Made by a program: the position numbers and the translations under genes. Of a DNA stretch of 64,000 bases, positions 1 through 61,000 are shown one piece after another. Origin of the DNA: Timema cristinae (lineage: Eukaryota > Arthropoda > Insecta > Phasmatodea > Timematidae); the NCBI GenBank assembly GCA_039000515.1, contig JBCFYV010000012.1:126300132-126364131 (forward strand). Reading direction: 5' to 3'. Position 1 is the first letter of the stretch. Each line of letters starts with the position of its first letter. The notes beneath the pieces were generated by a model. The model searched no databases, was not told the origin of the DNA, and was given only the letters and a program-made list of their open reading frames with translations.

Positions 1-119
1 AAATGTCTTACTTGGGCTAGTAGCTAATTGTGGTGATAAATCCAAACATTCCCAATTCAGGATGGAATGTTGCTACTGACTCGCCACAAAGTGGAGGGCC
101 CAGCTCGAATAAGTAGCAG
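1..119. other. Intron 3' of exon 55, unique sequence
   Basis: Short unique stretch between the window edge and the 49-bp array. The next DYNC2H1 exon is beyond the window. Nothing recognised. Confidence 0.6.
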
Positions 120-3100
120 GACACAGTGTTACCGTCAGTACGATGATAGCCTTGTGGACATATAGCAAGACACTAGGTTACCTTCAGTACGATGATAGCA
201 TTGTGGACACATAGCAAGACGCTAGAAACCTTCAGTACAATGATAGCATTGTGGACAATAGCAAGACAGGACGATTACCTTCATACGATGATAGCATTGT
301 GGACATATAGCAAGACACACGTTACCTTCAGTACATGATAGCATTGTGGACACATAGCAAGACACGACGTTACCTTCAGTACGATGATAGCATTGTGGAC
401 ATATACAAGACACGACATTACCTTCAGTACGATGATAGCATTGTGGACATATAACAAGACACTAGGTTACCTTCAGTACGATGATAGCATTGTGGACACA
501 TAGCAAGACACTAGGTTACCTTCAGTACGATGATAGCATTGTGGACATATAGCAAGACACTAGGTTACCTTCAGTACGATGATAGCATTGTGGACACATA
601 GCAAGACCTTCAGTATGATGAAGCGTTGTGGACATATAGCAAGACACGACGTTACCTTCAGTACGATGATAGCATTATGGACATATAGCAAGACACGACT
701 TACCTTCAGTACGATGATAGCATTGTGGACATATAGCAAGACACGACATTACCTTAAGTATGATGATAGCATTGTGGACATATAGCAAGACACTAGTTAC
801 CTTCAGTACGATGATAGCATTGTGGACATATAGCAAGACACTAGGTTACCTTCAGTATGATGATAGCATTGTGGACATATAGCAAGACACTAGGTTACCT
901 TCAGTACGATGATAGCATTGTGGACACATAGCAAGACCTAGAAAACCTTCAGTACAATGATAGCATTGTGGACAATAGCAAGACACGACGTTACCTTCAT
1001 TCCGATGATAGCATTGTGGACATATAGCAAGACACAACGTTACCTTCAGTACAATGATAGCATTGTGGACACATAGCAAGACACGACGTTACCTTCAGTA
1101 CGATGATAGCATTGTGGACACATAGCAAGACGCAGGTTACCTTCAGTATGATGATAGCATTGTGGACATATAGCAAGACACTAGGTTACCTTCAGTACGA
1201 TGATAGCATTTGGACACATAACAAGACACGACGTTACCTTCAGTATGATGATAGCATTGTGGACATATAGCAAGACACGCCATTACCTTCAGTACGATGA
1301 TAGTATTGTGGACATATAGCAAGACACGACGTTACCTTCAGTATGATGAAAGCATTGTGGACATATAGCAAGACACTAGGTTACCTTCAGTATGATATAG
1401 CATTGTGGACATATAGCAAGACACGACATTACCTTAAGTACGATGATAGCATTGTGGACATATAGCAAGACACGCATTACCTTAAGTACGATGATAGCAT
1501 TGTGGACATATAGCAAGACATGACATTACCTTCAGTACGATGATAGCATTGTCGACAGATAACAAGACACAAGTTACCTTCAGTACGATGATAGCAATGT
1601 GGACATATAGCAAGACACGACATTACCTTAAGTATGATGATAGCATTGTGGACACTATAGCAAGACACGACGTTACCTTCAGTATGATGATAGCATTGTG
1701 GACATATAGCAAGACACAGGCTACCTTCAGTACGATGATAGCATTGTGGACAATAGCAAGACACGATGTTACCTTCAGTACGATGATAGCATTTGTGGAC
1801 ATATACAAGACACGACATTACCTTCAGTACATGATAGATTGTGGACATATAGCAAGACACGACATTACCTTCAGTATGATGATAGCATTGTGGACATATA
1901 GCAAGACACGAACGTTACCTTCAGTACGATGATAGCATTGTGGACTATAACAAGACACGACGCTACCGTTTAGTACGATATAGCTTGTGGACAATAGCAA
2001 GACACGACGTTACCTTCAGTACGATGATAGCATTGTGGACATATAGCAAGACACGACATTACCTTCAGTACGATGATAGCATTGTGGACACATAACAAGA
2101 CACGATGCTACCGTCAGTACGATGATAGCATTGTGGACACATAGCAAGACACGAGGTTACCTCAGTACAATGATAGCATTGTGGACACATAGCAAGACAC
2201 GAGTTACCTTCAGTACATGATAGCATTGTGGACACATAGCAAGACACGAGTTACCTTCAGTACATGATAGCATTGTGGACACATAGCAAGACACAGGTTA
2301 CCTCAGTATGATGATAGCATTGTGGACAATAGCAAGACACAGTTACCTTCAGTACGATGATAGCATTGTGGACACATAACAAGACACGACGTTACCTTCA
2401 GTATGATGATAGCATTGTGGACATATACAAGACACGACGTTACCTTCAGTACAATGATAGCATTGTGGACACATAGCAAGACACGACGTTACCTTCAGTA
2501 CATGATAGCATTGTGGACACATAGCAAGACATAAGGTTACCTTCATACATGATAGCATTGTGGACACATAGCAAGACACGATGTTACCGTCAGTACAATG
2601 ATAGCATTGTGGACACATAGCAAGACACGAGGTTACCTTCAGTATGATGAGAGCGTTGTGGACACATAGCAAGACACGAGGTTACCTTCAGTATGATGAG
2701 CGTTGTGGACACATAGCAAGACACGAGGTTACCTTCAGTATTATGAGAGCGTTGTGGACACATAGCAAGACACGAGGTTACCTTCAGTATGATGAGAGCG
2801 TTGTGGACACATAGCAAGACACGAGGTTACCTTCAGTATGATGAGAGCGTTGTGGACACATAGCAAGACACGAGGTTACCTTCAGTATGATGAGAACGTT
2901 GTGGACACATAGCAAGACACGACGTTACCTTCAGTACGATGATAGCATTGTGGACATATAGCAAGACACGATGCTACCTTCAGTATGATGAGAGCGTTGT
3001 GGACACATAGCAAAACACGAGGTTACCTTCAGTATGATGAGAGCATTGTGGACATATAACAAGACACTAGGTTACCTTCAGTATGATGAGAGCGTTGTGA

Positions 3101-3789
3101 ACACATAGCAAGACACGACATTACCTTCAGTACAATGATAGCATTGTGGACACATAGCAAGACACGACGTTACCTTCAGTATGATGATAGCATTGTGGAC
3201 ATATAGCAAGACACGACATTACCTTCAGTTCAATGATAGCATTGTGGACACATAGCAAGACACGACATTACCTTCAGTATGATGATAGCATTGTGGACAT
3301 ATAGCAAGACACGAGGTTACCTTCAGTATGATGATAGCATTGTGGACATATAGCAAGACACTAGGTTACCTTCAGTATGATGATAGCATTGTGGACACAT
3401 AGCAAGACACGAGGTTACCTTCAGTATGATGAGAGCGTTGTGGACACATAGCAAGACACGAGGTTACCTTCAGTATGATGAGAGCGTTGTGGACACATAG
3501 CAAGACACGAGGTTACCTTCAGTATGATGAGAGCGTTGTGGACACATAGCAAGACATGAGGTTACCTTCAGTATGATGAGAGCGTTGTAGACACATAGCA
3601 AGACACGAGGTTACCTTCAGTATGATGAGAACGTTGTGGACACATAGCAAGACACGACGTTACCTTCAGTACGATGATAGCATTGTGGACATATAGCAAG
3701 ACACGATGCTACCTTCAGTATGATGAGAGCGTTGTGGACACATAGCAAGACACGACGTTACCTTCAGTATGATGAGAGCGTTGTGGACA
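120..3789. repeat. 49-bp minisatellite carrying exon 55 tail plus donor (~75 copies)
   Basis: On the minus strand each unit reads the exon end (VHNALIILK, 28 bases), the donor GTAAC and 16 further intron bases. Units differ by substitutions and single-base gaps. Subtypes are visible: GAGAGCGTTG (plus strand) near the exon and ATAGCATTG further away. Confidence 0.95.
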
Positions 3790-4013
3790 GAGAGTTCATC
3801 TGAGGGCAGTCCTTCAGACAACCATTGCAACTGTTCCTTCTCAGACCCAAGAAACGAAGTGAGGGAGAATTGGTGTACTCCGAGGACCTCTTGCCATCGC
3901 CCCAGCAAGGACCTCCGTGAATCTTCTGGAGCAGAGGACAGGTAAGTGATGCATGCGGCTCCCAGTAAGGAGTGCAGGGGAAGAGCTGTCAGATCCTTGG
4001 AGAGTTCTCCCAG
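3762..4013 (-). CDS. DYNC2H1: DYNC2H1 exon 55 (stalk end / AAA5 start), last in window
   Basis: 84 codons: [37 protein letters not shown] and [16 protein letters not shown], matching AAFITYLSAAPESLRKTCL and LPSDDLSIENALVIL. Acceptor TTGCAG, donor GTAACG, phase 0. The last 28 bases plus donor seed the 0.1-3.8 kb array. Confidence 0.95.
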
Positions 4014-7000
4014 CTGCAATATAGAAGCATAGAAACATAGCACTGTTACAACCACGCACTGCTTCCGACCTCCAGCTGTGAAATAAACACCAATATCAAA
4101 AGTATTATTTATGAATGCCACATGTCATAGTGCCTTAGTTTGTACTTAGTATGCTGCACTTACTCAAGTATCACTATAATATGCATGATATATAATGCAT
4201 TGACTCTATTAGCGCAAGCCTATACTGGATTCTGGTGCAAAAAATGCCACAGCTATTTCAGAATTTTTGCAAGGTTGTACATGAAAAATCGTCAAACTGT
4301 AACTTATGAGGGGACTTATCAGTGTGTTTTGGAACAGAAAGGACTTATCATTCTGGTATCATAATACAGTCTTACACTACCGGTATCTATCAGTAACGCC
4401 AGAACTATGCCACTTGAAAGCAAATCAAATTTGCTCATGACACTTTAATGGTAGAAATGAACCTGTCAGATGCTCAGGGCCTAGGTATAAATCGATTAAT
4501 CAAATGTAATGAAAACACACAGGCACAAGCATTCTTTCGATACACATGTCATCTCTCCGCTGAGAGAGCAAAGTGAAGCCACGTGTCTGTTGGCTACACC
4601 TGTACTATAGATTTTCCAGTCCACATGAGCCATGTGAGAGGATCTGTTAGCTACCATGTTTCCGTCAAATAATGAGAGAGTAGATCTTAGTCACTGTGTC
4701 TCAGCCAAAAACCACTGAAGTAGACTGTTAGCTCACTGGTCTCCAGCCCAACTGAGCTCACGTAATTTATCTGTTAGCTCACCTGTGTCTTCCTCCAACA
4801 TGAGGCCAGTGAGAGTACTGTAGCCACTGTGTCTCAGCCAACATGAGGCCGTGAGTGATCTGTTAGTCACTGGCTCCAGTCAACAGGGACTGACTAGAGT
4901 AGATCTGTTAGCTCACAGTGTCTTCCAGTCACTGAGACTGACGTGAGAGTAGATCTGTTAGTTCACCTGTGTCTTCCAGTCCAACATGAGACTGACGTGA
5001 GAGTAGATCTGTTAGCTCACCTGTGTCTTCCAGCGGTTGTACTCGTCATTAAGCTTCTCGACCAGTCCTTCTGCAGCATTGATGGTTTCCTGAGCCCGAT
5101 TCAGATGTATCTCTATCTCCGCAGCCTCTCGAGTGTACGTGTTGAGCTGATCTTTGAGCTTTGCGACTGTTCGGTCCACATCACTCAGTCCTGAGCTGAG
5201 CTGCCCGATCTGATTCTTTGCCATCATCAGGTTGTGTTGTAGCTTAGCCTGTTCCTGCTCCAGAGGTGAGATCTTCTCAAGGACATGCGAGTACTGAACA
5301 TTGGCCATCACCCACGCTGCCAATGGCGCTGCCGCTGTGGATGCACGCCGGGCCGTCTTTGGGTCAAACGACTCGCCCTTTTCCTGCAATAGCTTCTCCA
5401 CTGCCAGACGACTTTCTCGACTGATTTGTCGGGCGTCAAACGATCTGCAAGTTGTAGAAATTGTTCATAGCCTTGGTTACAATCTGATTAACTTTTACAT
5501 GTCGAGTCATTTTCAAGGGCATAGAAAGGGAGGGGTTTTCAGGTCTCTTCCCCCTGGAATATGGTGGAGCCCCCTTAGGTGACCCACCTGATGTCCTCCT
5601 TCACACCCCTCTTGGCCAAGAAGATCTTCATACTGTTCCAGGATGTGTCTAGTATCCCCATGAGCCTCAGCACACCTTCCAAGATGTCTCTGATCACCTC
5701 GGGAGGAGCGCGCATGGACCGAATCTCGGACAACGACTCTGACTTGATGTTTCCCACCGCAGCGGTCGCCTCACGGATCAGAGGTTCAATCTCCGCTAGC
5801 TCCTCATCAATAGCTCGCTTCCTACAGGACAAAATGAGTGATATCTCACTAAAAAAAACATTAAAAATGTAAAAGGGTTAGACAAGTACACTCGCAAATA
5901 TCTATTGTTAGCGCCCAGTCTCCTGATCTGACCTCATCAGGAGGGAGTGTGAAATGCGCAACAATGTTTCTATATAAATGTTCTGTTCCTCTTTCCTGTC
6001 AATAACAATTCAAAGAGTGAGCCCCACTGACCTCACCACCAGCTGTTGGTTCTCCTTCTCAGTCTGTTCCTTGAGGCATTCCATCTCCGTCTTGTGACTA
6101 TTTGCGCTGCGCATCGTCTCCGTTATCATTTGCAGGGCAGAGTTGGCTTTGGCTTGTTTCTCTGCGAGCCTCTGCTCCTGATTGGCTGCTTCAGACTTGA
6201 GGGAGTCCACTACCTGGCGGGCCTCTGTCAACTTGGACACCCCTGCCTGTAAAGGATGTGTCTTGAGTAGTGTTTACACTTGTGACAGGAGCCTTGCCGA
6301 GATACTAGCGGGTGTAGCACTGACCTGGAGCTGAGCGCATCTCTGCTGTATCCCTGACTTCTTGCTGGTAAAGATGTGAATGTACGTGTGAATGAACGCC
6401 ATATAGCGGCGAGGCGTTCTTAGCGTGTTGGACACCTGAGAGTGAATGGTGAAGAAACCATCATTGAGGACGGTGTCCACAAGGTCACCCCCCTCTTCAA
6501 CGCAACCAGATCTGCAGCACAAATTAGATACGGTTCATGTTAAACTGAAAACACAAGAGCACTGTGGGAATGTTTAGATCCGATACCAACATAGCCTCGT
6601 GTATGTGTGACGGTAGCACCCTCTCTAGGACCAAGTTGAGCATCAGAGGTGTTACCTCAAGGACCTGTCTTATGTCTGCAATGTGTATTAACAGAATATA
6701 CTTCACCTTGTACTGAGTTGGACTGACAATGCTATCAGTACGAGATGTTCACTTCAGTCAACGTCTATAATAAGAAGAACCTTGTTTCACTTCCAAATAC
6801 AATACAAACAAAAGACTATCGAATAGTGAATCCAAATCTTGGAATAATCATGAACATGAGAGCAAACATGATAATATAAAATACAAATAATAACTAAAGC
6901 CTAACATTATTTCTTCTAATCTGTTCATTATAACATTCATAATTCAGTTAAGTGTTAAATTACTGGTCTGGGGTCTGGTTGTTAAATTAATCCTACAATT

Positions 7001-13000: not shown

Positions 13001-16000
13001 GTGCTGGTACCCCTGCCCCAGTTGGACTCTAGGGTCTTGTTGAGGATGTTGTCAAACTTGGACTTGTCCTCCTCGGAAACCAACTTGTCCTGGAACAGTC
13101 TCATGCCCTCGTACACGAACACCTGGAACAATTTGCATCATCACATACAGAGAGATGTTCAAAGGGATGTGCACTTCATCCACATACTAAAATAATATAT
13201 AATAGACAACTTAAAACAACAAAACTTTCGCCATTTAGCAACGCAGTATTCATTGAACCTGCTTCGGTGGTCGAATGGTCAAAAGTGCAACTCTCTTGAA
13301 ATAAACTGGAATATTGTTGATGGGGAGATCCAGGTTTGAATTCTGGTCAGGTGTAATAGGGTACATTTCCTCTAAATTCAACCTTCCTCACCCCTAACTC
13401 AAAGTGTAACTAGTACAAAAGGGTGGTAAAATAAGACAAAAGTATCCATAGCACAAGAGAGAGTGGGGTTATTTTTGAAAGCCACTCACTGTGTGTGCTT
13501 GAGTGTTTGCTTACTGTAAGAGGATTAAAGAAAGAGTAGAAATAATTAGATGGAGAAAAGATTGAGCAATGAGTCACCCACAAACAAAGATAGGTAGCAG
13601 TATACAACAAGCTCGAAATCACCGACCATGTAGCTTTGTTAAAATAGTCACAGTATCTATTAAAAGATCGACCCAAGCTTGAAAATATTTTTAATATTGG
13701 TATTGTGTCTTACCTCCAGCACAGAGTTGACTGATTGTATCGTAACATGGCCAGTCTTACCTCCAGCACAGAGTTGACTGAGTGTATCGTAACATGGCCA
13801 GTCTTACCTCCAGCACAGAGTTGACTGATTGTATCGTAACATGGCCAGTCTTACCTCCAGCACAGAGTTGACTGATTGTATCGTAACATGGCCAGTCTTA
13901 CCTCCAGCACAGAGTTGATTGAGTGTATCGTAACATGGCCAGTCTTACCTCCAGCACAGAGTTGACTGATTGTATCGTAACATGGCCAGTCTTACCTCCA
14001 GCACAGAGTTGACTGATTGTATCGTAACATGGCCAGTCTTACCTCCAGCACAGAGTTGACTGATTGTATCGTAACATGGCCAGTCTTACCTCCAGCACAG
14101 AGTTGACTGATTGTATCGTAACATGGCCAGTCTTACCTCCAGCACAGAGTTGACTGAGTGTATCGTAACATGGCCAGTCTTACCTCCAGCACAGAGTTGA
14201 CTGATTGTATCGTAACATGGCCAGTCTTACCTCCAGCACAGAGTTGACTGATTGTATCATAACATGGCCAGTCTTACCTCCAGCACAGAGTTGACTGATT
14301 GTATCGTAACATGGCCAGTCTTACCTCCAGCACAGAGTTGACTGATTGTATCGTAACATGGCCAGTCTTACCTCCAGCACAGAGTTGACTGAAGGATCCT
14401 CTTGTTTAAGATTGTATCGTAACATGGCCAGTCTTACCTCCAGCACAGAGTTGACTGAAGGATCCTCTTGTTTAAGATTGTATCGTAACATGGCCAGACA
14501 CCAGCGAGTAAGGTCTTTAGGGGTGAACAGATAGTGGTTCTGTTGCATTGGAGTGAGCGACACCTTCACCTGGTGGGAAATACAGCACTTGTTAGAGCAG
14601 ATATAGTCACATGGTAGTTCCTGCAGGGATGTATGATGGTTGTGAAAGGAAGTCTCAAGTTCAAGTGAGAAAACTTGACCATAACCAATAAAAACAATGA
14701 GTAGAATTGACACGAATATCTGGGTGATAAAAAGTCATGTCATGTAATTAAATGACTATATTTGCAAAAATTAAATAAAAAAATAAGTTTTTGAATAAAA
14801 AGGTTTATTAATAACAAAAACTGTACTTAACCTTCAAAAAGGTTTACAAAAAAATATATTAAGTTTACATTTTTTTTATTTAATATAGCTATGAATGAAT
14901 TTATTAAATTTGTTTTTTGTTGTTCAATATTCTCTTTTGAAGGTTTCTTTTCTATTAATTTACTTCATTTAGTGCTTGGAAAATATCTCGCAACTAAAAT
15001 TTAAACAAACGTTATACTGGTATTTGATGATTACCTCCTCGTAGACAGTGATCATGGTGGTAGCCAGGGAGGCTATCTTGGTTGCGTTGCCCCAGTTTGA
15101 GTGATTGGGCAAACACTGGGCCATTATATGACTCAGGTACAAGTTGTACATAGACTTTAACTGGTCCCTCTCTGGATAGCTGACAAACAAACAACTCAGT
15201 TACAGTAACTTAGCAACAATGCACTCTATCTGGAAACGTAACAGGAACAAAGTAAATAGTTACTCTACATAACAACAGAATCAACGAGGTTTGAAAATAA
15301 CACCTGCCAGGTTATACAACTAATGGGTTAGGGATGAGGAAGGTTGAATTTTAGAGAAAGTGTTCCCATATTTGCGTGGCGGGGGAGTGAAACCTCCAGT
15401 ACATCTGACCAGGAGTTTAATCGGCAGTCTAGTCTATTGCGAGAGTAGCGCCCTAGACCATACGACCGCTGAAGTTGACCATGACAACTATCCTAACTGT
15501 GTGTTCACCTGACAGAATATATCCTGGTAATTGAAGTGAAGCGTGGATTCAGCTTGTGTCGGCCCATAGCACCTTCGCTGGTCATACTGCCGACAATCTG
15601 GACATGTTCCAGACCCACCCATTCCAAGTTACTGCTGTCGTAGAAACCTCGGTACGTTATCACCTGCAACAATCTGTCAACTATCCGAGCCTGCTCCAAC
15701 ACATTCTGCTGTCATCACCTGCCATACAACCAGTAGAGTACCAGTACCTGTTGGAGGAATGCTATAAGCATGGAAGTCCCCCACTTGTCTGGTCTTGCGA
15801 GGTTTAGGTCCTTGAAGTACAAGATGAGATGTCCACTGTTCTTGGGTCTGTACACCCGCCCTGTGTTACTGGATATCACCATACACACCTGGGACAAACA
15901 ATACATCATTGCACGTTCTTACTTATAACTATATACACTGTGGATATTTACTACACATAGCTATAGTTGTACCTGGCTCAGTTTCTGCAACACGTGTTGT

Positions 16001-43000: not shown

Positions 43001-46000
43001 GAACAAGTGGCTGAACCTTCCACCATTTCTATGCACAACACAGCACCGCACAGCTAATGTTACAATGTTCAACAGCACAGCCTCCAGAATACAAACATAG
43101 CTGTGATAAAAATATGTTGTTTATTTATTTACCACAGTGTGAACTGTGTAACTATAGTAGAAAAATACCAAAACAATATGGCCGTGTTTTGTCTGTGAAA
43201 AACCAGTTCCTTTTGGGTAAATTTAAAATTTGTTGGCTGTCAATGAAAATGTCCAATGGTGAAATAGTGAAGCCCCCACGTGGTCAAATGTTCTAAGGCG
43301 TCTTTCTCACAAAATATTGAACTGCCAAAATCCTGGTTGGATGCACTAAGAGTGGTTTCTCAAAAATAATCCCCCCCCCCCTCTATCTCCCTCTCTCCAC
43401 ACACAAATGTGGGTACACTTCCTCTCCTCATGACTTTACTCGTATCTGAGAATGTCGAAGAGAGAGGTATTCCCACAATCGACTGGGACTTCCCCTCAGA
43501 AGGAAGTTGTGCTACGAGAATCTATTTGTTGACCTTGGCCGGGTTTGAACCCACGAGCATCGGGTCCTGAGGAGAGCACTTGATCCCGGGAGCACCGAGG
43601 TGGACCACTGATTAGTAAATGTGTGTGCAACCCATATGGGTAGTGAGACGCGGCGACATAAATAATATAAAATACAAATAGTAACTAAAGGGTAACATTC
43701 ATACATTCAGCAGCTACGTGTTAAATTACTGGTCTGGGGTCTGGTTGTCAAGTTCATCCTATAATTATAATTGGTTCTGAATCACAAAATAAGGAGCATT
43801 AGAACTATCGAACAAATTTAACTTGAAAAATAAAACTAGTCTTGAATTAGAAATTTTCTCGAGTCTCGATGTACCCACATTTGAAAGGAAAGTGGAATAC
43901 CATTTTGGAAAACCCCCTCAGTACACCCGGCCAAGATTTGAACCTTGATCTCCCCATAATTGGCAGTCTAGTCAACTCCAAGAGAAGCAGGTTAGACAAC
44001 ATGGCCACCAAAGCGGGTTTGAATGTTATAAAATTGTAAATAACATAACCCCAAATTAGTTAAATATAGTTGTTAACATGAATATTAGTCAAAATATTAT
44101 ATAAACAATGATCGGTTGAAACCTGGCGTAGTATTTTAACTTTTGATATGAAGATACAAAAGTACAGGGAGCGGCAAAAAGATCTGACGGTGTTAAAGTA
44201 CAAATAACACAAATGTTAAGAGTGATAAAAAATGTTTTATTGGTTATTACAGAATGGTTTTATTGGAAATTAAAGAAAATAACATTGGAACAACCGATTT
44301 CATCAGTTTAAGATTTGAAGCTGACGTCCTTCAAATGGTGCCCTTCTGTGATGAAGCACTCTTGCAGTCTCGCACCAAAACTGTCGAACACCTTCCCTAA
44401 CATTGCAGGAGACAGGTTGGCGATTTCCTGAGTTATGGCCACCTTAAGTTCGCCCAATGTGCGGGGCTTGTTTGTGTACTCTTGATTTCAAGAAACCCCA
44501 CAAGAAAAAAATCACAAACGCTTAGTTCAGGGGAGCGTGTTGGCCATGCAATATCCCTGAAACACTTTTCAAAAAGTCCATCACCTCATTGGTTGTATGG
44601 GCAGTTGCCCCATCCTGCTGGAACCACATTCTACTGCGCACTAAGCGTTTTCTCCCAAGTTCAGGGATCAGGAGGTTTTGTAACATCAACAGATAACGTT
44701 GCGAATTGACCGTAACAGTTCGACCGCCCTCTTCAAAGAAGTATGGCCCAATGACACAAGTTTTTGTTACACCACACCACACAGTGACCTTAGGACTATG
44801 CAGAGGACGTTCATGCAGTTCTTCAGGATTTGTAGCTGACCAATAACGAAAGTTCTGTTTATTTACATAACCGTCCAGATGAAAATGTGCCTCGTCGCTC
44901 AACATGAACATTTTTTTTCATCTGTCATCAAATCAATCATTTGCTGTGAAAATGCATTTCGCTTTTGCATAGTTATTGGGCTTTAACTGCTGAACAATAG
45001 CCATTTTGTATGGATGGAAATGCTGATCGAACCGCAAAATTCGTCTTACCGAGCGGTCAGACATATGCAAAGCAGCAGCTTGTTTACGTGTCGGCCGCTG
45101 AGGACTGGCTTCCACAGCTTCTCTTACTCTATCGATATTCTTTGGCGTCCGGGATGACCTTGGACGGCCTGTCGACTTCCGTTTCAACGCTGAACCGGTA
45201 GCTCTGAAGTTACTCACACACAGCATAATTGTGTTGCGTGTCGGAACTTTTCCTCGTGGACCTAAATTAAAACTCCTACGGAACTGCCGCTGCTCAGCAA
45301 CACAGGAATCGCCACTTTTAAAAAACGCCTCGACAACAAACGCGCGATGCTCAACTGACAACTGCCCCATGGCTACATGCTCTGAAACGCGCCTATCCCC
45401 ACCACCTACTCGCTCAACCGCGCGGCGGCGAAAACCGTCAGATCATTTTACCACTCCCTGTCTCTCAAATTATTTAATAACGTGAGCGATACATTATATT
45501 TTAATATATTTTACCCTTATATTAATTAGATATTTTTTAATTCAAATCTACATAACATATGAACATACTCTTGGGAATATTTGAGAATGTTGGCAGTCAC
45601 CCACCTGTCAATGATTGTTGGGAATATTTGAGAATGTTGGCAGTCACCCACCTGTCAATGATTGTTGGGAATATTTGGGAATGTTGGCAGTCACCCACCT
45701 GTCAATGATTGTTGGGAATATTTGGGAATGTTGGCAGTCACCCACCTGTCAATGATTGTTGGGAATATTTGAGAATGTTGGCAGTCACTCACCTGTCAAT
45801 GATTGTTGGGAATATTTGAGAATGTTGGCAGTCACCCACCTGTCGATGATTGTTGGGAATATTTGAGAATGTTGGCAGTCACCCACCTGTCAATGATTGT
45901 TGGGAATATTTGGGAATGTTGGCAGTCACCCACCTGTCAATGATTGTTGGGAATATTTGAGAATGTTGGCAGTCACTCACCTGTCAATGATTGTTGGGAA

Positions 46001-49000
46001 TATTTGAGAATGTTGGCAGTCACCCACCTGTCAATGATTGTTGGGAATATTTGAGAATGTTGGCAGTCACCCACCTGTCAATGATTGTTGGGAATATTTG
46101 GAATGTTGGCAGTCACCCACCTGTCAATGATTGTTGGGAATATTTGAGAATGTTGGCAGTCACTCACCTGTCAATGATTGTTGGAATATTTGGGAATGTT
46201 GGGAGTCACTCACCTGTCAATGATTGTTGGAGAATATTTGAGAATGTTGGCAGTCACCCACCTGTCAATGATTGTTGGGAATATTTGAGAATGTTGGCAG
46301 TCACCCACCTGTCAATGATTGTTGGGAATATTTGAGAATGTTGGCAGTCACCCACCTGTCAATGATTGTTGGGAATATTTGAGAATGTTGGCAGTCACCC
46401 ACCTGTCAATGATTGTTGGGAATATTTGAGAATGTTGGCAGTCACCCACCTGTCAATGATTGTTGGGAATATTTGAGAATGTTGGCAGTCACCCACCTGT
46501 CAATGATTGTTGGGAATATTTGAGAATGTTGGGAGTCACTCACCTGTCAATGATTGTTGAGAATATTTGAGAATGTTGGCAGTCACCCACCTGTCAATGA
46601 TTGTTGGGAATATTTGGGAATGTTGGCAGTCACCCACCTGTCAATGATTGTTGGGAATATTTGGGAATGTTGGCAGTCACCCACCTGTCAATGATTGTTG
46701 GGAATATTTGGGAATGTTGGCAGTCACCCACCTGTCAATGATTGTTGGAATATTTGAGAATGTTGGCAGTCACCCACCTGTCAATGATTGTTGGGAATAT
46801 TTGGGAATGTTGGCAGTCACCCACCTGTCAATGATTGTTGGGAATATTTGGGAATGTTGGCAGTCACCCACCTGTCAATGATTGTTGGGAATATTTGAGA
46901 ATGTTGGCAGTCACTCACCTGTCAATGATTGTTGGGAATATTTGGGAATGTTGGGAGTCACTCACCTGTCAATGATTGTTGAGAATATTTGAGAATGTTG
47001 GCAGTCACCCACCTGTCAATGATTGTTGGGAATATTTGAGAATGTTGGCAGTCACCCACCTGTCAATGATTGTTGGGAATATTTGAGAATGTTGGCAGTC
47101 ACCCACCTGTCAATGATTGTTGGGAATATTTGAGAATGTTGGCAGTCACCCACCTGTCAATGATTGTTGGGAATATTTGAGAATGTTGGCAGTCACCCAC
47201 CTGTCAATGATTGTTGGGAATATTTGGGAATCTTGGGAGTCGCTCACACCTCGAAAGTTGTTAGGTATTGACAGAAATCTCTTGAGTTGTCCGTAGTATT
47301 TCATCCGTATCTCCTCCATGGGGGGTCGGAACTGGAGATTTTGCTGCCTGCAATAATGTTAATATGGTTTAGATCGGGAGGGGTAGCCAGTGATGCTGGG
47401 AAATAAAGCCAATTGTTTACATAAAACAAGTAATAATGTTAATATGGTTTAGATCGGGAGGGGTAGCCAGTGATGCTGTGAAATAAAGCCAATTGTTTAC
47501 ATAAAACAAGTAATAATGTTAATATGGTTTAGATCGGGAGGGGTAGCCAGTGATGCTGGGAAATAAAGCCAATTGTTTACATAAAACAAGTAATAATGTT
47601 AATATGGTTTAGATCGGGAGGGGTAGCCAGTGATGCTGGGAAATAAAGCCAATTGTTTACATAAAACAAGTAATAATGTTAATATGGTTTAGATCGGGAG
47701 GGGTAGCCAGTGATGCTGTGAAATAAAGCCAATTGTTTACATAAAACAAGTAATAATGTTAATATGGTTTAGATCGGGAGGGGTAGCCAGTGATGCTGGA
47801 AATAAAGCCAATTGTTTACATAAAACAAGTAATAATGTTAATATGGTTTAGATCGGGAGGGGTACTAGCTGGTAAGAATGCTCGTGAAATAAAGCCAATT
47901 GTTTACATAAAACATGCAAATGCATTTTTAAAGACAATCTTACACTATCACAGACAACTTCTTCAGGTCGAGAGAGTAGACTGACGCTTTGGTTGGATGT
48001 CAACAACTGATTGTTTTAAAGTTATAATTTCACTGTAAAGATGGCAGCAGTTTGTTTTTTAAATCCATTCCTTATTCCAGCCTGGGGTCAGTTTTTTATC
48101 CAAGCCATATATTTATCACTACCGACTGGCTAGGCCTGTCATAGCTTCATATGTATCATAATCTAACTTAAGACTAGGACAGGCACAACATCCAGTCCCC
48201 GCCTGTTGATTTATAAATGTGAAAGGGTAAGTCCACATTTCATCAATGATATATTTTTCGGCTATGCCGGGAATCGAACCTGGACCTTTAGCATGACATG
48301 GTACTGACTGAGCTAAGGTGTCGGGTTTTTGTTACATACAAATGGTTAATATATATTAGTAGGTGCGCTGTTAGGAAGGTGGTTAGAGGTCTGATGTATT
48401 GATTGGCGTTGCAGAGCAGAGGGATGTGTAACACTGATTAAAGTCCATACTATAGGTTTTGGCCTGTGATGCTACACATTATTATAAACAAGTTATACGT
48501 GTAAAGAGTGGTTCATTAGAAGAAACAAATGTTTTCTAAAATAACCATGTAAATGTGATTGCTATTACTTATAATTTAAAGGAGTGTTCACCTGTACACC
48601 AACTCTATCTTTATCTCGGGCAGGTGTTGGTCGAGGGCTGCTAGCCCCACCTGGTACTGGTGCTCTAGAGCCTTGTACAGCTGTCGGTCCCAGTGGGACC
48701 GCCAAGACTTCATGTTGGAGAACTTCTGAAAACAAAATATTATACTCTTGTACTCAACAAGTTAAAGGGAAGTTTAATAAACTCAGGCGAGTAGAAATGA
48801 ACTCCATTTATGGAATTAGAAGGGTAAAATTTAACATATCATGTTGTCATATTCTTCTTCCTTTCTACTTTTTTTGTCAACGCGTCTCCCAACCCGATCG
48901 GGTTGTACACATATGTACAGTACTACATTACGCTAATCTATTAAGCATGATAAATGTTGAACTTAGAGGAAATGTATCCACATTTGTATGGAGGTGGGTA

Positions 49001-52000
49001 TAAACAATTTTGGGGAAAACCCCTCTAAGTAAACGTGGCCGGTATTTGAACCCTGATCTCCCGTAGCTAATTTTAGCACAGGAATGGTCTATGGCACATG
49101 CTCTCTGATCTTTGAGCCCTCCAAACTTGCAAATATATCAAGTACTTTCAAATAATGTTTAAGTGTAGACAAAATAAGCTAAGATGTTCATAATTGGTCA
49201 TGTTATAAGAAACGTTAATAGTTTAATGCAAATATTTATATTTTATTTATTATATATTATTTTATAAAGGTAAGGTAATAATTATGGTATTTGAGGAAAT
49301 ATTTCATTCAAGGAATAAATATAAGATGTATAAATAACAAAAAGATAGCTAAAGTAGAGTGGAGCGGGATTTCCAATGAGTTTAGAAGGAGAGGTTTTCT
49401 GACCTCTGGTGTAAAGGACTAACCTGACTCTCCACTAGTCCCTCTACCTCTGGTGTAAGGGACTAACCTGACTCTCCACTAGTCCCTCTACCTCTGGTGT
49501 AAAGGACTAACCTGACTCTCCACTAGTCCCTCTACCTCTGGTGTAAGGGACTAACCTGACTCTCCACTAGTCCCTCTACCTCTGGTGTAAGGGACTAACC
49601 TGACTCTCCACTAGTCCCTCTACCTCTGGTGTAAGGGACTAACCTGACTCTCCACTAGTCCCTCTACCTCTGGTGTAAGGGACTAACCTGACTCTCCACT
49701 AGTCCCTCTACCTCTGGTGTAAGGGACTAACCTGACTCTCCACTAGTCCCTCTACCTCTGGTGTAAGGGACTAACCTGACTCTCCACTAGTCCCTCTACC
49801 TCTGATTTAAAGGACTAACCTGACTCTCCACTAGTCCCTCTACCTCTGGTGTAAAGGACTAACCTGACTCTCCACTAGTCCCTCTACCTCTGGTGTAAGG
49901 GACTAACCTGACTCTCCACTAGTCCCTCTACCTCTGATTTAAAGGACTAACCTGACTCTCCACTAGTCCCTCTACCTCTGGTGTAAAGGACTAACCTGAC
50001 TCTCCACTAGTCCCTCTACCTCTGGTGTAAGGGACTAACCTGACTCTCCACTAGTCCCTCTACCTCTGGTGTAAGGGACTAACCTGACTCTCCACTAGTC
50101 CCTCTACCTCTGGTGTAAAGGACTAACCTGACTCTCCACTAGTCCCTCTACCTCTGATTTAAAGGACTAACCTGACTCTCCACTAGTCCCTCTACCTCTG
50201 GTGTAAAGGACTAACCTGACTCTCCACTAGTCCCTCTACCTCTGATTTAAAGGACTAACCTGACTCTCCACTAGTCCCTCTACCTCTGGTGTAAAGGACT
50301 AACCTGACTCTCCACTAGTCCCTCTACCTCTGATTTAAAGGACTAACCTGACTCTCCACTAGTCCCTCTACCTCTGGTGTAAGGGACTAACCTGACTCTC
50401 CACTAGTCCCTCTACCTCTGGTGTAAAGGACTAACCTGACTCTCCACTAGTCCCTCTACCTCTGGTGTAAGGGACTAACCTGACTCTCCACTAGTCCCTC
50501 TACCTCTGGTGTAAGGGACTAACCTGACTCTCCACTAGTCCCTCTACCTCTGGTGTAAGGGACTAACCTGACTCTCCACTAGTCCCTCTACCTCTGGTGT
50601 AAGGGACTAACCTGACTCTCCACTAGTCCCTCTACCTCTGGTGTAAGGGACTAACCTGACTCTCCACTAGTCCCTCTACCTCTGGTGTAAGGGACTAACC
50701 TGACTCTCCACTAGTCCCTCTACCTCTGGTGTAAGGGACTAACCTGACTCTCCACTAGTCCCTCTACCTCTGATTTAAAGGACTAACCTGACTCTCCACT
50801 AGTCCCTCTACCTCTGGTGTAAAGGACTAACCTGACTCTCCACTAGTCCCTCTACCTCTGGTGTAAGGGACTAACCTGACTCTCCACTAGTCCCTCTACC
50901 TCTGATTTAAAGGACTAACCTGACTCTCCACTAGTCCCTCTACCTCTGGTGTAAAGGACTAACCTGACTCTCCACTAGTCCCTCTACCTCTGATTTAAGG
51001 GACTAACCTGACTCTCCACTAGTCCCTCTACCTCTGGTGTAAGGGACTAACCTGACTCTCCACTAGTCCCTCTACCTCTGGTGTAAGGGACTAACCTGAC
51101 TCTCCACTAGTCCTCTACCTCTGGTTGTAAGGGACTAACCTGACTCTCCACTAGTCCCTCTACCTCTGGTGTAAAGGACTAACCTGACTCTCCACTAGTC
51201 CCTCTACCTCTGATTTAAAGGACTAACCTGACTCTCCACTAGTCCCTCTACCTCTGGTGTAAAGGACTAACCTGACTCTCCACTAGTCCCTCTACCTCTG
51301 ATTTAAAGGACTAACCTGACTCTCCACTAGTCCCTCTACCTCTGGTGTAAGGACTAACCTGACTCTCCACTAGTCCCTCTACCTCTGATTTAAAGGACTA
51401 ACCTGACTCTCCACTAGTCCCTCTACCTCTGGTGTAAGGACTAACCTGACTCTCCACTAGTCCCTCTACCTCTGTTTAAAGGACTAACCTGACTCTCCAC
51501 TAGTCCCTCTACCTCTGGTGTAAAGGACTAACCTGACTCTCCACTAGTCCCTCTACCTCTGGTGTAAAGGACTAACCTGACTCTCCACTAGTCCCTCTAC
51601 CTCTGGTGTAAAGGACTAACCTGACTCTCCACTAGTCCCTCTACCTCTGGTGTAAAGGACTAACCTGACTCTCCACTAGTCCCTCTACCTCTGGTGTAAA
51701 GGACTAACCTGACTCTCCACTAGTCCCTCTACCTCTGGTGTAAAGGACTAACCTGACTCTCCACTAGTCCCTCTACCTCTGGTGTAAAGGACTAACCTGA
51801 CTCTCCACTAGTCCCTCTACCTCTGGTGTAAAGGACTAACCTGACTCTCCACTAGTCCCTCTACCTCTGGTGTAAAGGACCAACCTGACTCTCCACTAGT
51901 CCCTCTACCTCTGGTGTAAAGGACTAACCTGACTCTCCACTAGTCCCTCTACCTCTGGTGTAAAGGACCAACCTGACTCTCCACTAGTCCCTCTACCTCT

Positions 52001-55000
52001 GATTTAAAGGACTAACCTGACTCTCCACTAGTCCCTCTACCTCTGGTGTAAAGGACTAACCTGACTCTCCACTAGTCCCTCTACCTCTGGTGTAAGGGAC
52101 TAACCTGACTCTCCACTAGTCCCACAACTCCGCGGATGTCCTTGAGACCATCTTTCCACTGTTGTTGGTGTCTCAACAAATCAGTATTCATCAGTGCTAT
52201 CACCTGCAACAATAACTATGTGCTAAACCAAGCTACATGTTGGAATACATCAACAACAATGTGCTAAACCAAGCTACATGTTGGAATACATCAACAATGT
52301 GCTAAACCAAGCTACATGTTGGAATACATCAACAACTATTATATTTGTTGAGTATGGCCATAGCCCAATCTAAATATTATTTCTTTTAGTTGAAAAACGA
52401 CGCCTAGACAAGGGTATCGAACCCGTGACCTTTGACTTAATATGCTCATCCATTACAGACTCTGCCATAAAATACAAGGGAAGAATGATCCCTGGAAACA
52501 GTGTTAGGAGCATTGGAATACTAAGTCAAAGGTCCCAAGTTCAATTCCCATTTACAATTTAAAGAATACAAGCTACATGTTGACAAATAGCCCATTCGAT
52601 AAAATAAAGCGATGGGCTCTGGAAACATCAAGGATATTAGAGATTTGAGAAAATATTGAATAAGAGAGGAATATTTTAAATTGTAATTTGTTTAAGAGCG
52701 GACGCACTTTGTCACTGATCTGGGCATGGTAGGAGGCCAGCTTGTTGTTCTCTCGAGACAGCCTCTCCACGACAGATTGTAGCCGCGCGATATAAGTGTC
52801 CACGGCCGCTGTATCCCCCCAGGTGACACCGGTCTGCTCCTTCACCAACCGGCCATCTCTAGGGCCGCCTCCAGCATCATGGGTCGCTGGGACGGGATCA
52901 TACGGTCTCCGATTGTGTTGTGGAAGTTGGCCACCTGCGCACAAACCAACACACTAGTAGACACTTGTCGCATTATTTATCAACCTACCTTGTCAATTTA
53001 TTACAAATGTTTGCTTTTATTTAGTTCATCCCTTAAAAATAAATAGACTAAGTTGTTGGTTACATTTAATGTAAAGTTGGAAATCCTAATGAGAGAACTT
53101 TGGGCCCAGGAATAACTCTGTTATGGTTGTGCTTTGTTTTTTCAATAGTAATAATAATAACTAAATAATAATAATAAGCTAAATTATTGGCATCAGCCTG
53201 ATAACTAGTAGAGCTTAATATTAATTTTATAATAATATAATATATAAAGTCTGAATCTTTATAAAGTGAAATAATACACTCGTACCCTATCTTTCTGATC
53301 AGATCGGGTAGTGGCACTAGTATCACCTGCTCAAGAGCCTTGGCCTGTCGCATGAACCTCTTGGCTAGGTCTGCAGCCTCTTGTATCTTAAGAGGAATCT
53401 TGTAGCCAAGGACTGCCAACTGCCTCACCTCTCGCACCAGGCCAACCAACCTTGGGTTATAGTTGACATGCATCAGTTGTCCCCTCTCAAACTGGACCAC
53501 TGGCTCGTCTGTGTTTAGACTGCCAACAGGGAAATAGACATCTAGTATGGTTTTATCACTAGATTGCAGTATCACAAATATCTCCGGCCATCGATGTTTA
53601 TATATTTATAGTCGCAAAGTGTGATTATAACTCTCCTCCACAAACATCTACTAGCCTTAAATAAGATTATCTGATGGTTTGTTCCTTTTACTGATGGATA
53701 GTTTTAATGTAGGAAAATAAAAGGTTTGGTGAAAAGATTTTATTTAATGTTTCAAGAGAAATAATTTGCAAGCAGTTTTTTTATAAGTTTGACAAACGTG
53801 CGAAAATATTTACTGAGGTGATATTTTTGTTGTTGGTGCATTTTTGATTTTTTTTCAAACTATAAAATCATTTTATGGGGAAAAAATGTATTTGAAAATA
53901 CTTTAAACATAATAGTATTTATTTTTTGTGTTTATTGACCAGAATGTAAGGTGTCTAGTCATGATATTAATCACCTCAAGCTCTTGTTGTGTATAGCCAT
54001 GCCAACCTCCCTGGTCCAACCGTCAAACTGGTCCGTATGGAACTCCTTCAGGTCCCTGAGTAAGGCCCCAGCAGACCCCTGCAGTTCCTTGAAGCCTCTG
54101 AGGTCACTCAGGATCTTCACACCCGTTCTTTCCATGTCCCCCACCTCAAGAACAGTAACAGGGCGGACATTATAACACAGTTTTACGGACCTTGAAAACT
54201 CCCACTATTAAGACTGTTAGAAGTTTAAGTTTACAACGTTTTTGTTTGGCTATGAATATTTGTCAGCTTCCACTTTGCTTCGAAAGGAAAATTCTGGCTT
54301 CACCAAACACAAAGCTGCGTCAATAAGAAATTTAAAAACAGACAAATAAACATTTATGGTAAATTTGTTGTTATTTTCTTTATTTAAAGTATATCACGCA
54401 TTAATGTTCACTTTACAAAAATCTGTAATAGGCTTATTTAATTGCAGGCTGTAATAGTAACCTTTTTTTTTTGTCAATTTAGGCCAAAATATTTTAAACA
54501 TTTTGGAAATGAAACAATGTGTAATTGATATTTAGTAGGGTTGGGTCGAATCAACTATTTTAAAAAGCTGAATTCAAAACTTGGAAAAAATAATGAACAT
54601 GAAAGACCATATAATCTAATAATATAAAATACAAATCGTAACTAAATGTGAACATTCATTATATTAATTATAACATTCACATATTCAGTTGAGTGTTAAA
54701 ATTACTGGTCTGGGCTCTGGTTGTTAAGTTCATCTTACAATTATAATTGGTTTTAAACCCCCAATAAGCAGTATTAGAGCTCGAATCTCAAATATCCTTT
54801 AGGATGTGAGGTATTCGAGTGTCTAAGGTTATATAAAGTGCTTCTATACGCTCCATGCAGTGTCTGTCTGTCCTTTCAGGGATCCTTGTCCACTCCCCGA
54901 TAGTCTGGAGAGATGTCGTCTTTATGAACTCCAGATATTCTGTGAGAGGTGTGGACACACAACATACTACCTCCTGTTAGCCACGTACCTTGCATTCAAG

Positions 55001-58000: not shown

Positions 58001-61000
58001 TCGGAGGCTCCACATGGCGTATAGCACATGAGTAGGACTCACCTCCCCGAGTCTGTTGACGAAGTTCTTGGTGTGCGAAGGAACGAAGGGTGCTCCGTCC
58101 CACATGTGAGGGGTGTAATTAGACCATATAAATCCTGTGAGACGCTCACATGTTGTCACCCATTTGTCACAGATGGCTGAGCCCTGAACACAAGGTTGTT
58201 AATTGTTAGCAACTGTAACACTCCTTCATTAATGGAAACATATTTACCCACCTCGCTGGTCCAATAGTCTAAGGTGTCACTCTCACAATAGAGTGGACTG
58301 CCATGATGGGAATATAGGGGTTTGAATCCCAGTAAGGTGTAATGAGAGTGATTTTCCTTAAAATGGTTTTCCACTCTTCCTCCAAGCAAATGCCTCTTAA
58401 TTCAACCTTCCTCAACATTAAAACATGAGTGTAATTATTATGAACGAGAATAAGGATGCAATTCTAAAGAAACTATGAATTTGATTCAAATGTCTGAAAA
58501 AGAAAACTTTATTAGATTTGTATTTAAGTAAATAATAAAGTCAGGCAGACTCCTCGGCCCACTCCCCTGGTTGACAAGCTCCTCCATGCTGCTATAAGAC
58601 TCCTCAGCCCACTCCCCTGGTTGACAAGCTCCTCCATGCTGCTATAAGACTCCTCAGCCCACTCCCCTGGTTGAGAAGCTCCTCCATGCTGCTATAGGAC
58701 TCCTCGGCCCACTCCCTGGTTGAGAAGCTCCTCCATGCTGCTATAGGACTCCTCGGCCCACTCCCCTGGTTGACAAGCTCCTCCATGCTGCTATAAGACT
58801 CCTCGGCCCACTCCCCTGGTTGACAAGCTCCTCCATGCTGCTATAGGACTCCTCGGCCCACTCCCCTGGTTGACAAGCTCCTCCATGCTGCTATAAGACT
58901 CCTCGACCCACTCACCTGGTTGACAAGCTCCTCCATGCTGCTATAAGACTCCTCGGCCCACTCCCCTGGTTGACAAGCTCCTCCATGCTGCTATAAGACT
59001 CCTCAGCCCACTCACCTGGTTGACAAGCTCCTCCATGCTGCTATAAGACTCCTCAGCCCACTCCCCTGGTTGACAAGCTCCTCCATGCTGCTATAAGACT
59101 CCTCGGCCCACTCCCCTGGTTGACAAGCTCCTCCATGCTGCTATAAGACTCCTCGGCCCACTCCCCTGGTTGACAAGCTCCTCCATGCTGCTATAAGACT
59201 CCTCGGCCCACTCCCCTGGTTGACAAGCTCCTCCATGCTGCTATAAGACTCCTCAGCCCACTCCCCTGGTTGACAAGCTCCTCCATGCTGCTATAAGACT
59301 CCTCGGCCCACTCCCCTGGTTGACAAGCTCCTCCATGCTGCTATAAGACTCCTCGGCCCACTCCCCTGGTTGACAAGCTCCTCCATGCTGCTATGACTCC
59401 TCGACCCACTCCCCTGGTTGACAAGCTCCTCCATGCTGCTATAAGACTCCTCGACCCACTCACCTGGTTGACAAGCTCCTCCATGCTGCTATAGGACTCC
59501 TCGACCCACTCCCCTGGTTGACAAGCTCCTCCATGCTGCTATAAGACTCCTCAGCCCACTCACCTGGTTGACAAGCTCCTCCATGCTGCTATAAGACTCC
59601 TCGGCCCACTCCCCTGGTTGACAAGCTCCTCCATGCTGCTATGACTCCTCGACCCACTCCCCTGGTTGACAAGCTCCTCCATGCTGCTATAAGACTCCTC
59701 GACCCACTCACCTGGTTGACAAGCTCCTCCATGCTGCTATAAGTCTCCTCGGCCCACTCCCCTGGTTGACAAGCTCCTCCATGCTGCTATAAGACTCCTC
59801 AGCCCACTCACCTGGTTGACAAGCTCCTCCATGCTGCTATAAGACTCCTCGACCCACTCCCCTGGTTGACAAGCTCCTCCATGCTGCTATAAGACTCCTC
59901 GACCCACTCACCTGGTTGAGAAGCTCCTCCATGCTGCTATAAGACTCCTCAGCCCACTCCCCTGGTTGACAAGCTCCTCCATGCTGCTATAAGACTCCTC
60001 GACCCACTCACCTGGTTGAAAGCTCCTCCATGCTGCTATAAGACTCCTCGACCCACTCACCTGGTTGACAAGCTCCTCCATGCTGCTATAAGACTCCTCG
60101 ACCCACTCACCTGGTTGACAAGCTCCTCCATGCTGCTATAGGACTCCTCAGCCCACTCACCTGGTTGAGAAGCTCCTCCATGCTGCTATAAGACTCCTCA
60201 GCCCACTCCCTGGTTGACAAGTTCCTCCCTGCTGCTATAAGACTCCTCGACCCACTCACCTGGTTGAAAGCTCCTCCATGCTGCTATAAGACTCCTCGAC
60301 CCACTCCCTGGTTGACAAGCTCCTCCATGCTGCTATAAGACTCCTCGACCCACTCACCTGGTTGACAAGCTCCTCCATGCTGCTATAAGACTCCTCGACC
60401 CACTCACCTGGTTGACAAGCTCCTCCATGCTGCTATAAGACTCCTCGACCCACTCACCTGGTTGAGAAGCACCTCCATGCTGCTATAGGACTCCTCGACC
60501 CACTCACCTGGTTGAGAAGCTCCTACATGCTGCTATAAGACTCCTCGACCCACTCACCTGGTTGAGAAGCTCCTCCATGCTGCTATAAGACTCCTCGACC
60601 CACTCACCTGGTTGAGAAGCTCCTCCATGCTGCTATAAGACTCCTCGACTCACTCACCTGGTTGAGAAGCTCCTCCATGCTGCTATAAGGCTCCTCCCAT
60701 ACATTCAGTGGCTTCAGTCTCCTCTGGATCATCCCCACCACACCGTTTCCTGACACACAAACATTTCAATAACATACTGGCTACTAATCTAGAGGTTCTG
60801 TGTTCGATTTCCGGCGGTACGATAGCAGGGTCTGTCCCTAGGGTCACCATGGTATGGTTAATTAGGTTCAATACTTCTACTGGCACGATCATCATCATCA
60901 TCATCACATCGGGGCATGGTGTCCCAACCTCGGCATTAGATTACATATCTGCCACTACCAGGAATGTCAACCCGACAAACCAAGGTGGCAATGGGGAAAA

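What the first reader, a model, noticed from the sequence alone, without database searches (positions are those of the whole stretch)
120..60707. Thirteen introns hold minisatellites whose unit is an exon end plus its own 5' splice site
Introns after exons 5, 12, 14, 16, 17, 18, 20, 26, 29, 31, 44, 54 and 55 carry tandem arrays (2 to ~75 copies). Their unit is the last 11-66 exon bases, the donor, and 6-41 intron bases. Unit lengths (30, 33, 33, 38, 44, 47, 47/66, 49, 50, 54, 61, 72, 79/88) and sequences are unrelated, so the same event type happened independently many times in one gene. The copy touching the exon body keeps the mRNA intact; the others are decoy donors. Of about 20 arrays in the window, 13 straddle a donor, far above what random placement in ~54 kb of intron would give. 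I know AGGT-containing tandem duplication as a proposed route to new introns; I do not know of a description of serial donor-seeded minisatellite growth. A neutral reading is that such duplications are tolerated because the upstream donor stays usable; a mechanistic one is that the junction itself promotes slippage or re-replication.
Basis: partly seen in the sequence, partly recalled or inferred. Interest (0 to 1): 0.92.

Follow-up and report, generated by a model that had tools for sequence, protein, structure and literature searches.

The report
Splice-site minisatellites in stick insect genes
In a stick insect gene, and apparently in others of its genome, many introns begin with long tandem repeats copied from the exon's own end and splice signal; such repeats were known from a few lancelet genes, but here they favour the exon's end site strongly enough to suggest that this site itself is a hotspot for DNA duplication.

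Summary
The window is the minus-strand DYNC2H1 gene of a Timema stick insect (99% protein identity to T. cristinae). Over the whole 74-exon gene it is 15 of 25 arrays (1.9 expected), while acceptors stand at background (2 against 1.9). Units are unrelated, so the arrays arose separately. Predicted proteins of T. genevievae and T. tahoe contain the exon-29 repeat, which argues against an assembly artefact. Genome-wide, a repeated CAGGTRAGT pattern gives 1469 hits against 278 for its reversed control; of the first 10 arrays listed, two abut exons certain by homology (CTR9, TRAPPC10) and four more look exonic. The kind is known: amphioxus 'mirages'. New, as far as my searches show, are the insect host, the scale and the donor-specific excess. 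Uniform duplication plus tolerance does not explain that excess. A duplication bias at used donors, then ordinary minisatellite turnover, fits best; its molecular cause is unknown. No RNA or raw reads were available, and the distinct-array control and acceptor searches did not complete.

The parts
114..3789 (-). 49-bp array, ~76 copies, straddling donor of exon 55 (last exon base 3762; 28 exonic + 21 intronic nt per unit)
4687..5033 (-). 54-bp array straddling donor of exon 54 (last exon base 5021; 13 exonic nt)
13707..14497 (-). 47/66-bp array straddling donor of exon 44 (last exon base 14438)
22175..22302 (-). 61-bp array, 2 copies, straddling donor of exon 31 (last exon base 22274)
23296..24617 (-). 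33-bp array, ~40 copies, straddling donor of exon 29 (last exon base 24601); same unit read through in T. genevievae and T. tahoe predicted proteins
27310..27669 (-). 38-bp array straddling donor of exon 26 (last exon base 27645)
34297..35305 (-). 72-bp array, 14 copies without a mismatch, straddling donor of exon 20 (last exon base 35246)
37004..39260 (-). 79/88-bp array, ~27 copies, straddling donor of exon 18 (last exon base 39188)
39766..40050 (-). 30-bp array straddling donor of exon 17 (last exon base 40039)
41907..41991 (-). 33-bp array, ~2.5 copies, straddling donor of exon 16 (last exon base 41968)
45571..47241 (-). 47-bp array, ~35 copies, straddling donor of exon 14 (last exon base 47201)
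49402..52123 (-). 44-bp array, ~62 copies, straddling donor of exon 12 (last exon base 52105)
58547..60696 (-). 50-bp array, ~43 copies, straddling donor of exon 5 (last exon base 60658); 24 of 42 intronic copies carry GG in place of GT
24726..26053 (-). 31-bp array ending 2 nt inside exon 29; unit contains the acceptor TTCCAG|GA (mirror case at a 3' splice site)
47352..47914 (-). 80-bp array ending 4 nt before the acceptor of exon 14 (intronic only)
52210..52336 (-). 41-bp array ending 6 nt before the acceptor of exon 12 (intronic only)

Best explanation
These are mirage-type minisatellites. Each began as a local tandem duplication of about 30-90 bp that spanned a 5' splice site, and then grew and shrank by ordinary minisatellite turnover. 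The copy touching the exon keeps the exon end and a working donor, so a duplication is tolerated when that donor goes on being used. What uniform mutation plus tolerance does not explain is the excess: in this gene duplications sit on donors about eight times more often than random placement gives, while acceptors are at expectation. The most likely reason is a duplication bias at active 5' splice sites in this lineage, probably linked to transcription or splicing (for example RNA polymerase pausing, or RNA-DNA hybrids at the exon-to-intron switch). Shown: arrays, donor excess, independence, turnover pattern, one array unit also in predicted proteins of two other Timema species, genome-wide excess of the repeated donor motif. 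Inferred: which donor is used, neutrality, and the cause of the bias.
For: Whole gene: 15 of 25 arrays straddle donors (one of them, at gene exon 71, with only 2 exonic nt), 1.87 expected, not reached in 5000 draws; acceptors 2 against 1.90. Window: 13 of 22. Junction self-match bimodal. Sequence-matched pseudo-donors in introns lie in arrays less often than real donors: 24/253 against 15/60 at PWM>=6 (P=0.004), 7/79 against 11/41 at PWM>=8 (P=0.014). Genome: 1469 motif hits against 278 control; CTR9 has arrays at two donors, TRAPPC10 at one. Adjacent copies are slightly more alike than distant ones in six of seven arrays and equal in one. Exon-29 unit also in T. genevievae and T. tahoe proteins.
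Against: No direct evidence for a mechanism: no hairpin tendency at the 13 junctions; array-bearing donors not significantly stronger than others (P=0.08). At PWM>=10 the pseudo-donor contrast disappears (4/16 against 1/6), and the comparison left out sense pseudo-donors lying inside donor-seeded arrays while keeping antisense ones. Eight of 25 arrays lie inside introns (two abutting an acceptor), so a donor is not required. Four of 10 genome-wide motif arrays had no recognisable exon at their start, and frames of 36-65 codons open to the donor occur in three of those four too. Selection for extra donors is not excluded.
Confidence: 0.6

Rival explanations
1. Sequence hotspot: the motif AG|GTRAG itself, as DNA, promotes duplication wherever it occurs, without regard to splicing.
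For: All 15 array donors have AG|GT, and 14 of 15 a purine at +3 against 36 of 58 others. Four of 10 genome-wide motif arrays show no recognisable exon.
Against: Motif-matched intronic pseudo-donors on both strands lie in arrays less often than real donors at two of three thresholds; the third has too few sites to tell.
Confidence: 0.2
2. Selection for extra donors: many decoy 5' splice sites recruit U1 snRNP and protect the transcript or aid exon recognition, so donor duplications are favoured.
For: Outside exon 5 only 2 of 577 GT cells in decoys are changed. U1 protection of introns is established knowledge (recalled).
Against: The exon-5 array has lost GT in 24 of 42 intronic copies; GT columns are not significantly more conserved than random column pairs (P=0.59, or 0.11 without exon 5); 42 of 55 donors do without.
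Confidence: 0.12
3. Pure tolerance: duplications strike uniformly and only those over donors or in introns survive.
For: Explains why coding frames are kept and why the first copy is intact.
Against: Predicts far more arrays in deep intron than at donors; observed 15 donor arrays against 1.87 expected. Acceptors are at expectation, so a loss of acceptor arrays does not account for the asymmetry.
Confidence: 0.06
4. Assembly artefact or pseudogene: the arrays are false or the gene is dead.
For: Five single-site frameshifts in the window's coding exons and one more downstream.
Against: The exon-29 unit appears in predicted proteins of two other Timema species; no other in-frame stop in 3143 codons and 99% identity to a T. 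cristinae protein.
Confidence: 0.03
5. Intron birth by tandem duplication of an exonic AGGT segment.
For: Known route to new introns (PMC3443670 and PMC2891723, passages).
Against: Units include true intron sequence and do not resemble the acceptor side of the same intron (12 of 13 within the shuffled null; exon 31's match lies in a 140-bp intron and is the array itself).
Confidence: 0.02

Closest known systems
Amphioxus 'mirages' (Adh3, globins BflGb6 and BflGb9, TnC, PGBD5)
   Same: Minisatellite-like tandem repeats that span an exon-intron boundary, unit lengths differing between loci, cryptic splice signals in many copies, reported copy-number instability (passages of PMC3087553 and PMC3902484).
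   Different: Stick insect, not lancelet; many arrays in one gene; statistical excess at donors with acceptors at background, whereas the amphioxus papers report both boundaries; splicing not tested here.
Intron gain by tandem genomic duplication (AGGT)
   Same: A tandem duplication around an AG|GT creates extra splice-site copies (passages of PMC3443670 and PMC2891723).
   Different: There the unit is exonic and becomes a new intron; here the donor of an existing intron is repeated and the acceptor side is unrelated.
Ordinary intronic minisatellites / VNTRs (e.g. TERT intron 6, 38-bp repeats; start of abstract seen in listing)
   Same: Tandem repeats in introns with variable copy number.
   Different: [quoted passage not shown] here the unit is the junction.

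Membership tests
Amphioxus-type mirages | Minisatellite-like tandem repeat whose unit spans an exon-intron boundary | tested here: met
   13 arrays in the window, 15 at donors in the gene
Amphioxus-type mirages | Units of differing length per locus (10-72 bp in Adh3, 150-160 in globins) | tested here: met
   30-88 bp, unrelated sequences
Amphioxus-type mirages | Copies carry cryptic splice signals | tested here: met
   GT kept in 575 of 577 cells outside exon 5; lost in 24 of 42 copies at exon 5
Amphioxus-type mirages | Occur at both 5' and 3' boundaries | tested here: met
   15 donor, 2 acceptor arrays; acceptors only at background
Amphioxus-type mirages | Regular splicing is not disturbed (RT-PCR in the papers) | not testable with these tools
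   No RNA data held; an open frame exists through the exon-proximal donors
Amphioxus-type mirages | Length instability between alleles or in the soma | tested here: inconclusive
   Exon-29 repeat: ~40 copies in the window against about seven in predicted proteins of two other species; proteins may show only part of the array
Intron gain by tandem genomic duplication | Acceptor side derives from the same duplicated AGGT segment | tested here: not met
   Unit against acceptor side within shuffled null for 12 of 13

The most novel reading that the evidence does not exclude
Used 5' splice sites are a germline hotspot for tandem duplication in Timema: transcription or splicing at the exon-to-intron switch makes the DNA there prone to short tandem duplication, so that about a fifth to a quarter of the donors in a gene like this one seed a minisatellite, and introns grow from their 5' ends genome-wide.
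Probability: 0.4. Interest if true: 0.88.

Novelty: new variant of a known kind. Interest (0 to 1): 0.73.

Why it matters
If donors are really a mutational hotspot, it links RNA splicing or transcription to the origin of minisatellites, gives a route for intron growth and a supply of decoy splice sites, and makes the cause of the amphioxus mirages, called unclear in 2010 (PMC3087553, passage), testable in an insect genus with several sequenced species. It also warns annotators: gene predictions of two Timema species already contain the repeat as protein.

Tried and rejected
Intron gain by AGGT duplication (no acceptor-side match). A shared repeat family seeding all arrays (units unrelated). 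Hairpins at the junctions (z -1.4 to +1.6). Selection on decoy GT (not significant; my first count, 2 of 577 cells against a background near 3%, looked strong, but column permutation removed it). The first gene model without frameshifts had 60 exons with spurious tiny ones inside arrays and was replaced. A protein search with a wrong-frame ORF found nothing. Loci L001-L008, brought by a first test pattern, showed no donor-type array by TRF. CTR9's third array (67 bp) looked donor-straddling, but homology puts the donor about 30 nt upstream, so it is counted as intronic. The reversed-pattern and acceptor-pattern searches that would have given distinct-array controls did not complete.
Full report
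WHAT THE WINDOW IS. A minus-strand exon matches human cytoplasmic dynein 2 heavy chain (DYNC2H1) in PDB (5.7e-38). A search with draft exons found DYNC2H1 from many animals, with Timema proteins highest in local identity among the 120 listed. The modelled window protein is 99.0% identical to a T. cristinae predicted protein (1656 of 1672 aligned residues), 95.8% and 96.9% to two T. genevievae proteins and 95.4% to one of T. tahoe, so the window is a Timema stick insect, T. cristinae or a close sister. The genome held as G000 has 1.29 Gb in 7605 contigs; the window is C12:126300132-126364131.

GENE MODEL. I aligned a profile of 21 DYNC2H1 proteins to the DNA with a splice- and frameshift-aware program. 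The window holds 55 exons (9485 coding bases before a hand correction of the last exon end) and 54.5 kb of intron. With 40 kb of flank on the low side and 20 kb on the high side, the whole gene is 74 modelled exons over 82.8 kb. No RNA evidence was available.

THE OBSERVATION. Collapsed-gene placement gives 1.4-1.7 expected, and none of 4000 draws reached 13 under each of three rules. For the whole gene 15 of 25 arrays straddle donors (1.87 expected, 0 of 5000 draws) and 2 straddle acceptors (1.90 expected); donors against acceptors, binomial P=0.002. One of the 15, at gene exon 71, has only 2 exonic bases by TRF. The two acceptor cases are a 58-bp array with 47 exonic bases just outside the window (L013:56-557) and the 31-bp array with 2 exonic bases before window exon 29. 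The other 8 arrays lie inside introns, two of them ending 4 and 6 nt before an acceptor. Testing each junction against its own intron, 13 of 55 donors score 61 or more and the other 42 stay at or below the 99% null of 28. Array density is 29 per 100 kb in the gene (arrays of 100 bp or more) against 8 such arrays in 140 kb of 14 arbitrarily chosen stretches; none of those 8 abutted a convincing exon by eye, no database search was made.

ANATOMY. Each of the 13 window units has at least 12 exonic and 6 intronic bases. The donor's place within the unit does not differ significantly from uniform (P=0.10). Outside exon 5, decoys keep GT in 575 of 577 cells; in the exon-5 array 24 of 42 intronic copies carry GG. 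Column permutation finds no significant GT conservation (P=0.59 with seven large arrays, 0.11 without exon 5). The 11 CpG columns mismatch in 20% of cells against 2.5% in other non-CpG columns, as expected if the gene body is methylated; the title and start of the abstract of PMC2747282 (listing) report strong methylation within genes in another stick insect. Adjacent copies are slightly more alike than distant ones in six of seven arrays (equal at exon 12), and the exon-touching copy is more distant from the rest than the others are from each other in four of seven (exons 5, 14, 18, 44): ordinary minisatellite turnover. Units resemble neither each other nor, with one trivial exception, the acceptor side of their intron.

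INDEPENDENT SUPPORT. A predicted T. genevievae protein carries six extra copies of the 11-residue translation of the 33-bp exon-29 unit exactly at the end of exon 29, then continues with exon 30. A T. tahoe protein carries about seven such copies in the same region. The T. cristinae prediction has none there. So this unit is tandemly repeated in the window and in gene predictions of two other Timema species. The tail of another T. genevievae protein looks like read-through of the intron-25 repeat (unit translated by eye).

GENOME-WIDE. CAGGTRAGT repeated at 30-60 bp spacing occurs 750+719 times, against 82+196 for the pattern read backwards. These are hits, not arrays: the 100 listed places form 10 arrays on C1:1.2-13.6 Mb, so some 150 arrays of this exact motif is an inference, and the number of distinct control arrays is unknown. 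I fetched the upstream flank of all 10 (four extended). Five abut a frame that is open to the first donor and looks coding: CTR9 (L029; 1.9e-35), TRAPPC10 (L037; Pfam 2.4e-26), the same exon twice (L033, L034; Pumilio-like by recall only; no Pfam match, not tried against PDB), and one unnamed frame (L032; no Pfam or PDB match). A sixth (L035) has an E2F-like tail (by recall, not searched) whose stop codon comes just before the donor. Four (L030, L031, L036, L038) show no recognisable exon, although frames of 36-65 codons are open to the donor in three of them, so an open frame alone proves little; only CTR9 and TRAPPC10 are certain. In 20 kb of CTR9, 4 arrays of 60 bp or more were found; 2 straddle donors fixed by homology, 2 are intronic, one of them starting about 30 nt after a donor. 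These loci were chosen for the motif, so the CTR9 rate is not unbiased.

MECHANISM. Uniform duplication with tolerance predicts arrays in proportion to length; the donor excess contradicts it, and acceptors sit at expectation, so a loss of acceptor arrays is not what makes donors stand out. A motif acting as plain DNA is less likely, since matched pseudo-donors lie in arrays at 24 of 253 against 15 of 60 real donors (P=0.004) and 7 of 79 against 11 of 41 (P=0.014); at the strictest threshold (1 of 6 against 4 of 16) no difference can be seen. In that comparison antisense motifs inside donor-seeded arrays were counted, but sense pseudo-donors inside such arrays and all exonic ones were left out, so it is only indicative. 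Array-bearing donors are not significantly stronger (P=0.08) and no hairpin tendency was seen. I therefore favour a duplication bias tied to use as a splice donor, cause unknown; selection for extra donors stays possible.

WHAT IS KNOWN. PMC3087553 (passages read) describes 'mirages' in amphioxus globin genes and cites earlier reports for Adh3 and other loci; PMC3902484 (passage) adds TnC and PGBD5. The 2002 Adh paper is not held and is known to me only through those citations. Ten literature searches listed no description in stick insects or other insects that I could recognise from titles and abstract starts; the library lacks most subscription papers. A Timema centromere paper (PMC11691646, passages) treats tandem repeats but, in the passages seen, not exon junctions.

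LIMITS. One gene with full statistics; own gene model; TRF-based arrays; no reads, RNA or annotation; the genome search answered only twice.

Noticed in passing
window 61411, 52852, 27753, 24655, 22303 (and one downstream of the window, in L010): Single-site frameshifts in otherwise open coding exons; other Timema predicted proteins run on at the four of the five that they cover. Probably base errors of the assembly; a real broken allele is not excluded.
   Followed up: partly
window 44525-45442 (-): Two adjacent open frames inside intron 14 that look like a broken mariner-type transposase (recalled); the upstream frame matches Pfam DUF4817 helix-turn-helix (7.8e-13) and, below its cut-off, HTH_32; the other has no Pfam match.
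   Followed up: partly
window 27925-28152 and 62401-62628: A 228-bp stretch 96% alike lies beside two 37-bp arrays in introns 25 and 1, and its first 41 bp also match units of the intron-1 array: probably a mobile element whose edge was amplified, so these arrays likely have another origin than the donor arrays.
   Followed up: partly
window 34297-35305: The 72-bp array is in frame and open on both strands over its 14 copies, so use of a downstream donor would add 24 residues per copy without a stop; 0 of 911 'other' cells mismatch, i.e. very recent growth.
   Followed up: no
L033 and L034 (C1 7.27 and 7.30 Mb): The same exon and the same 42-bp donor array occur twice 22 kb apart: a duplication after the array formed, or haplotypes left in the assembly.
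   Followed up: no
all donors of the gene: 18 of 58 donors without arrays have C at +3 (GTC), none of 15 with arrays do.
   Followed up: no
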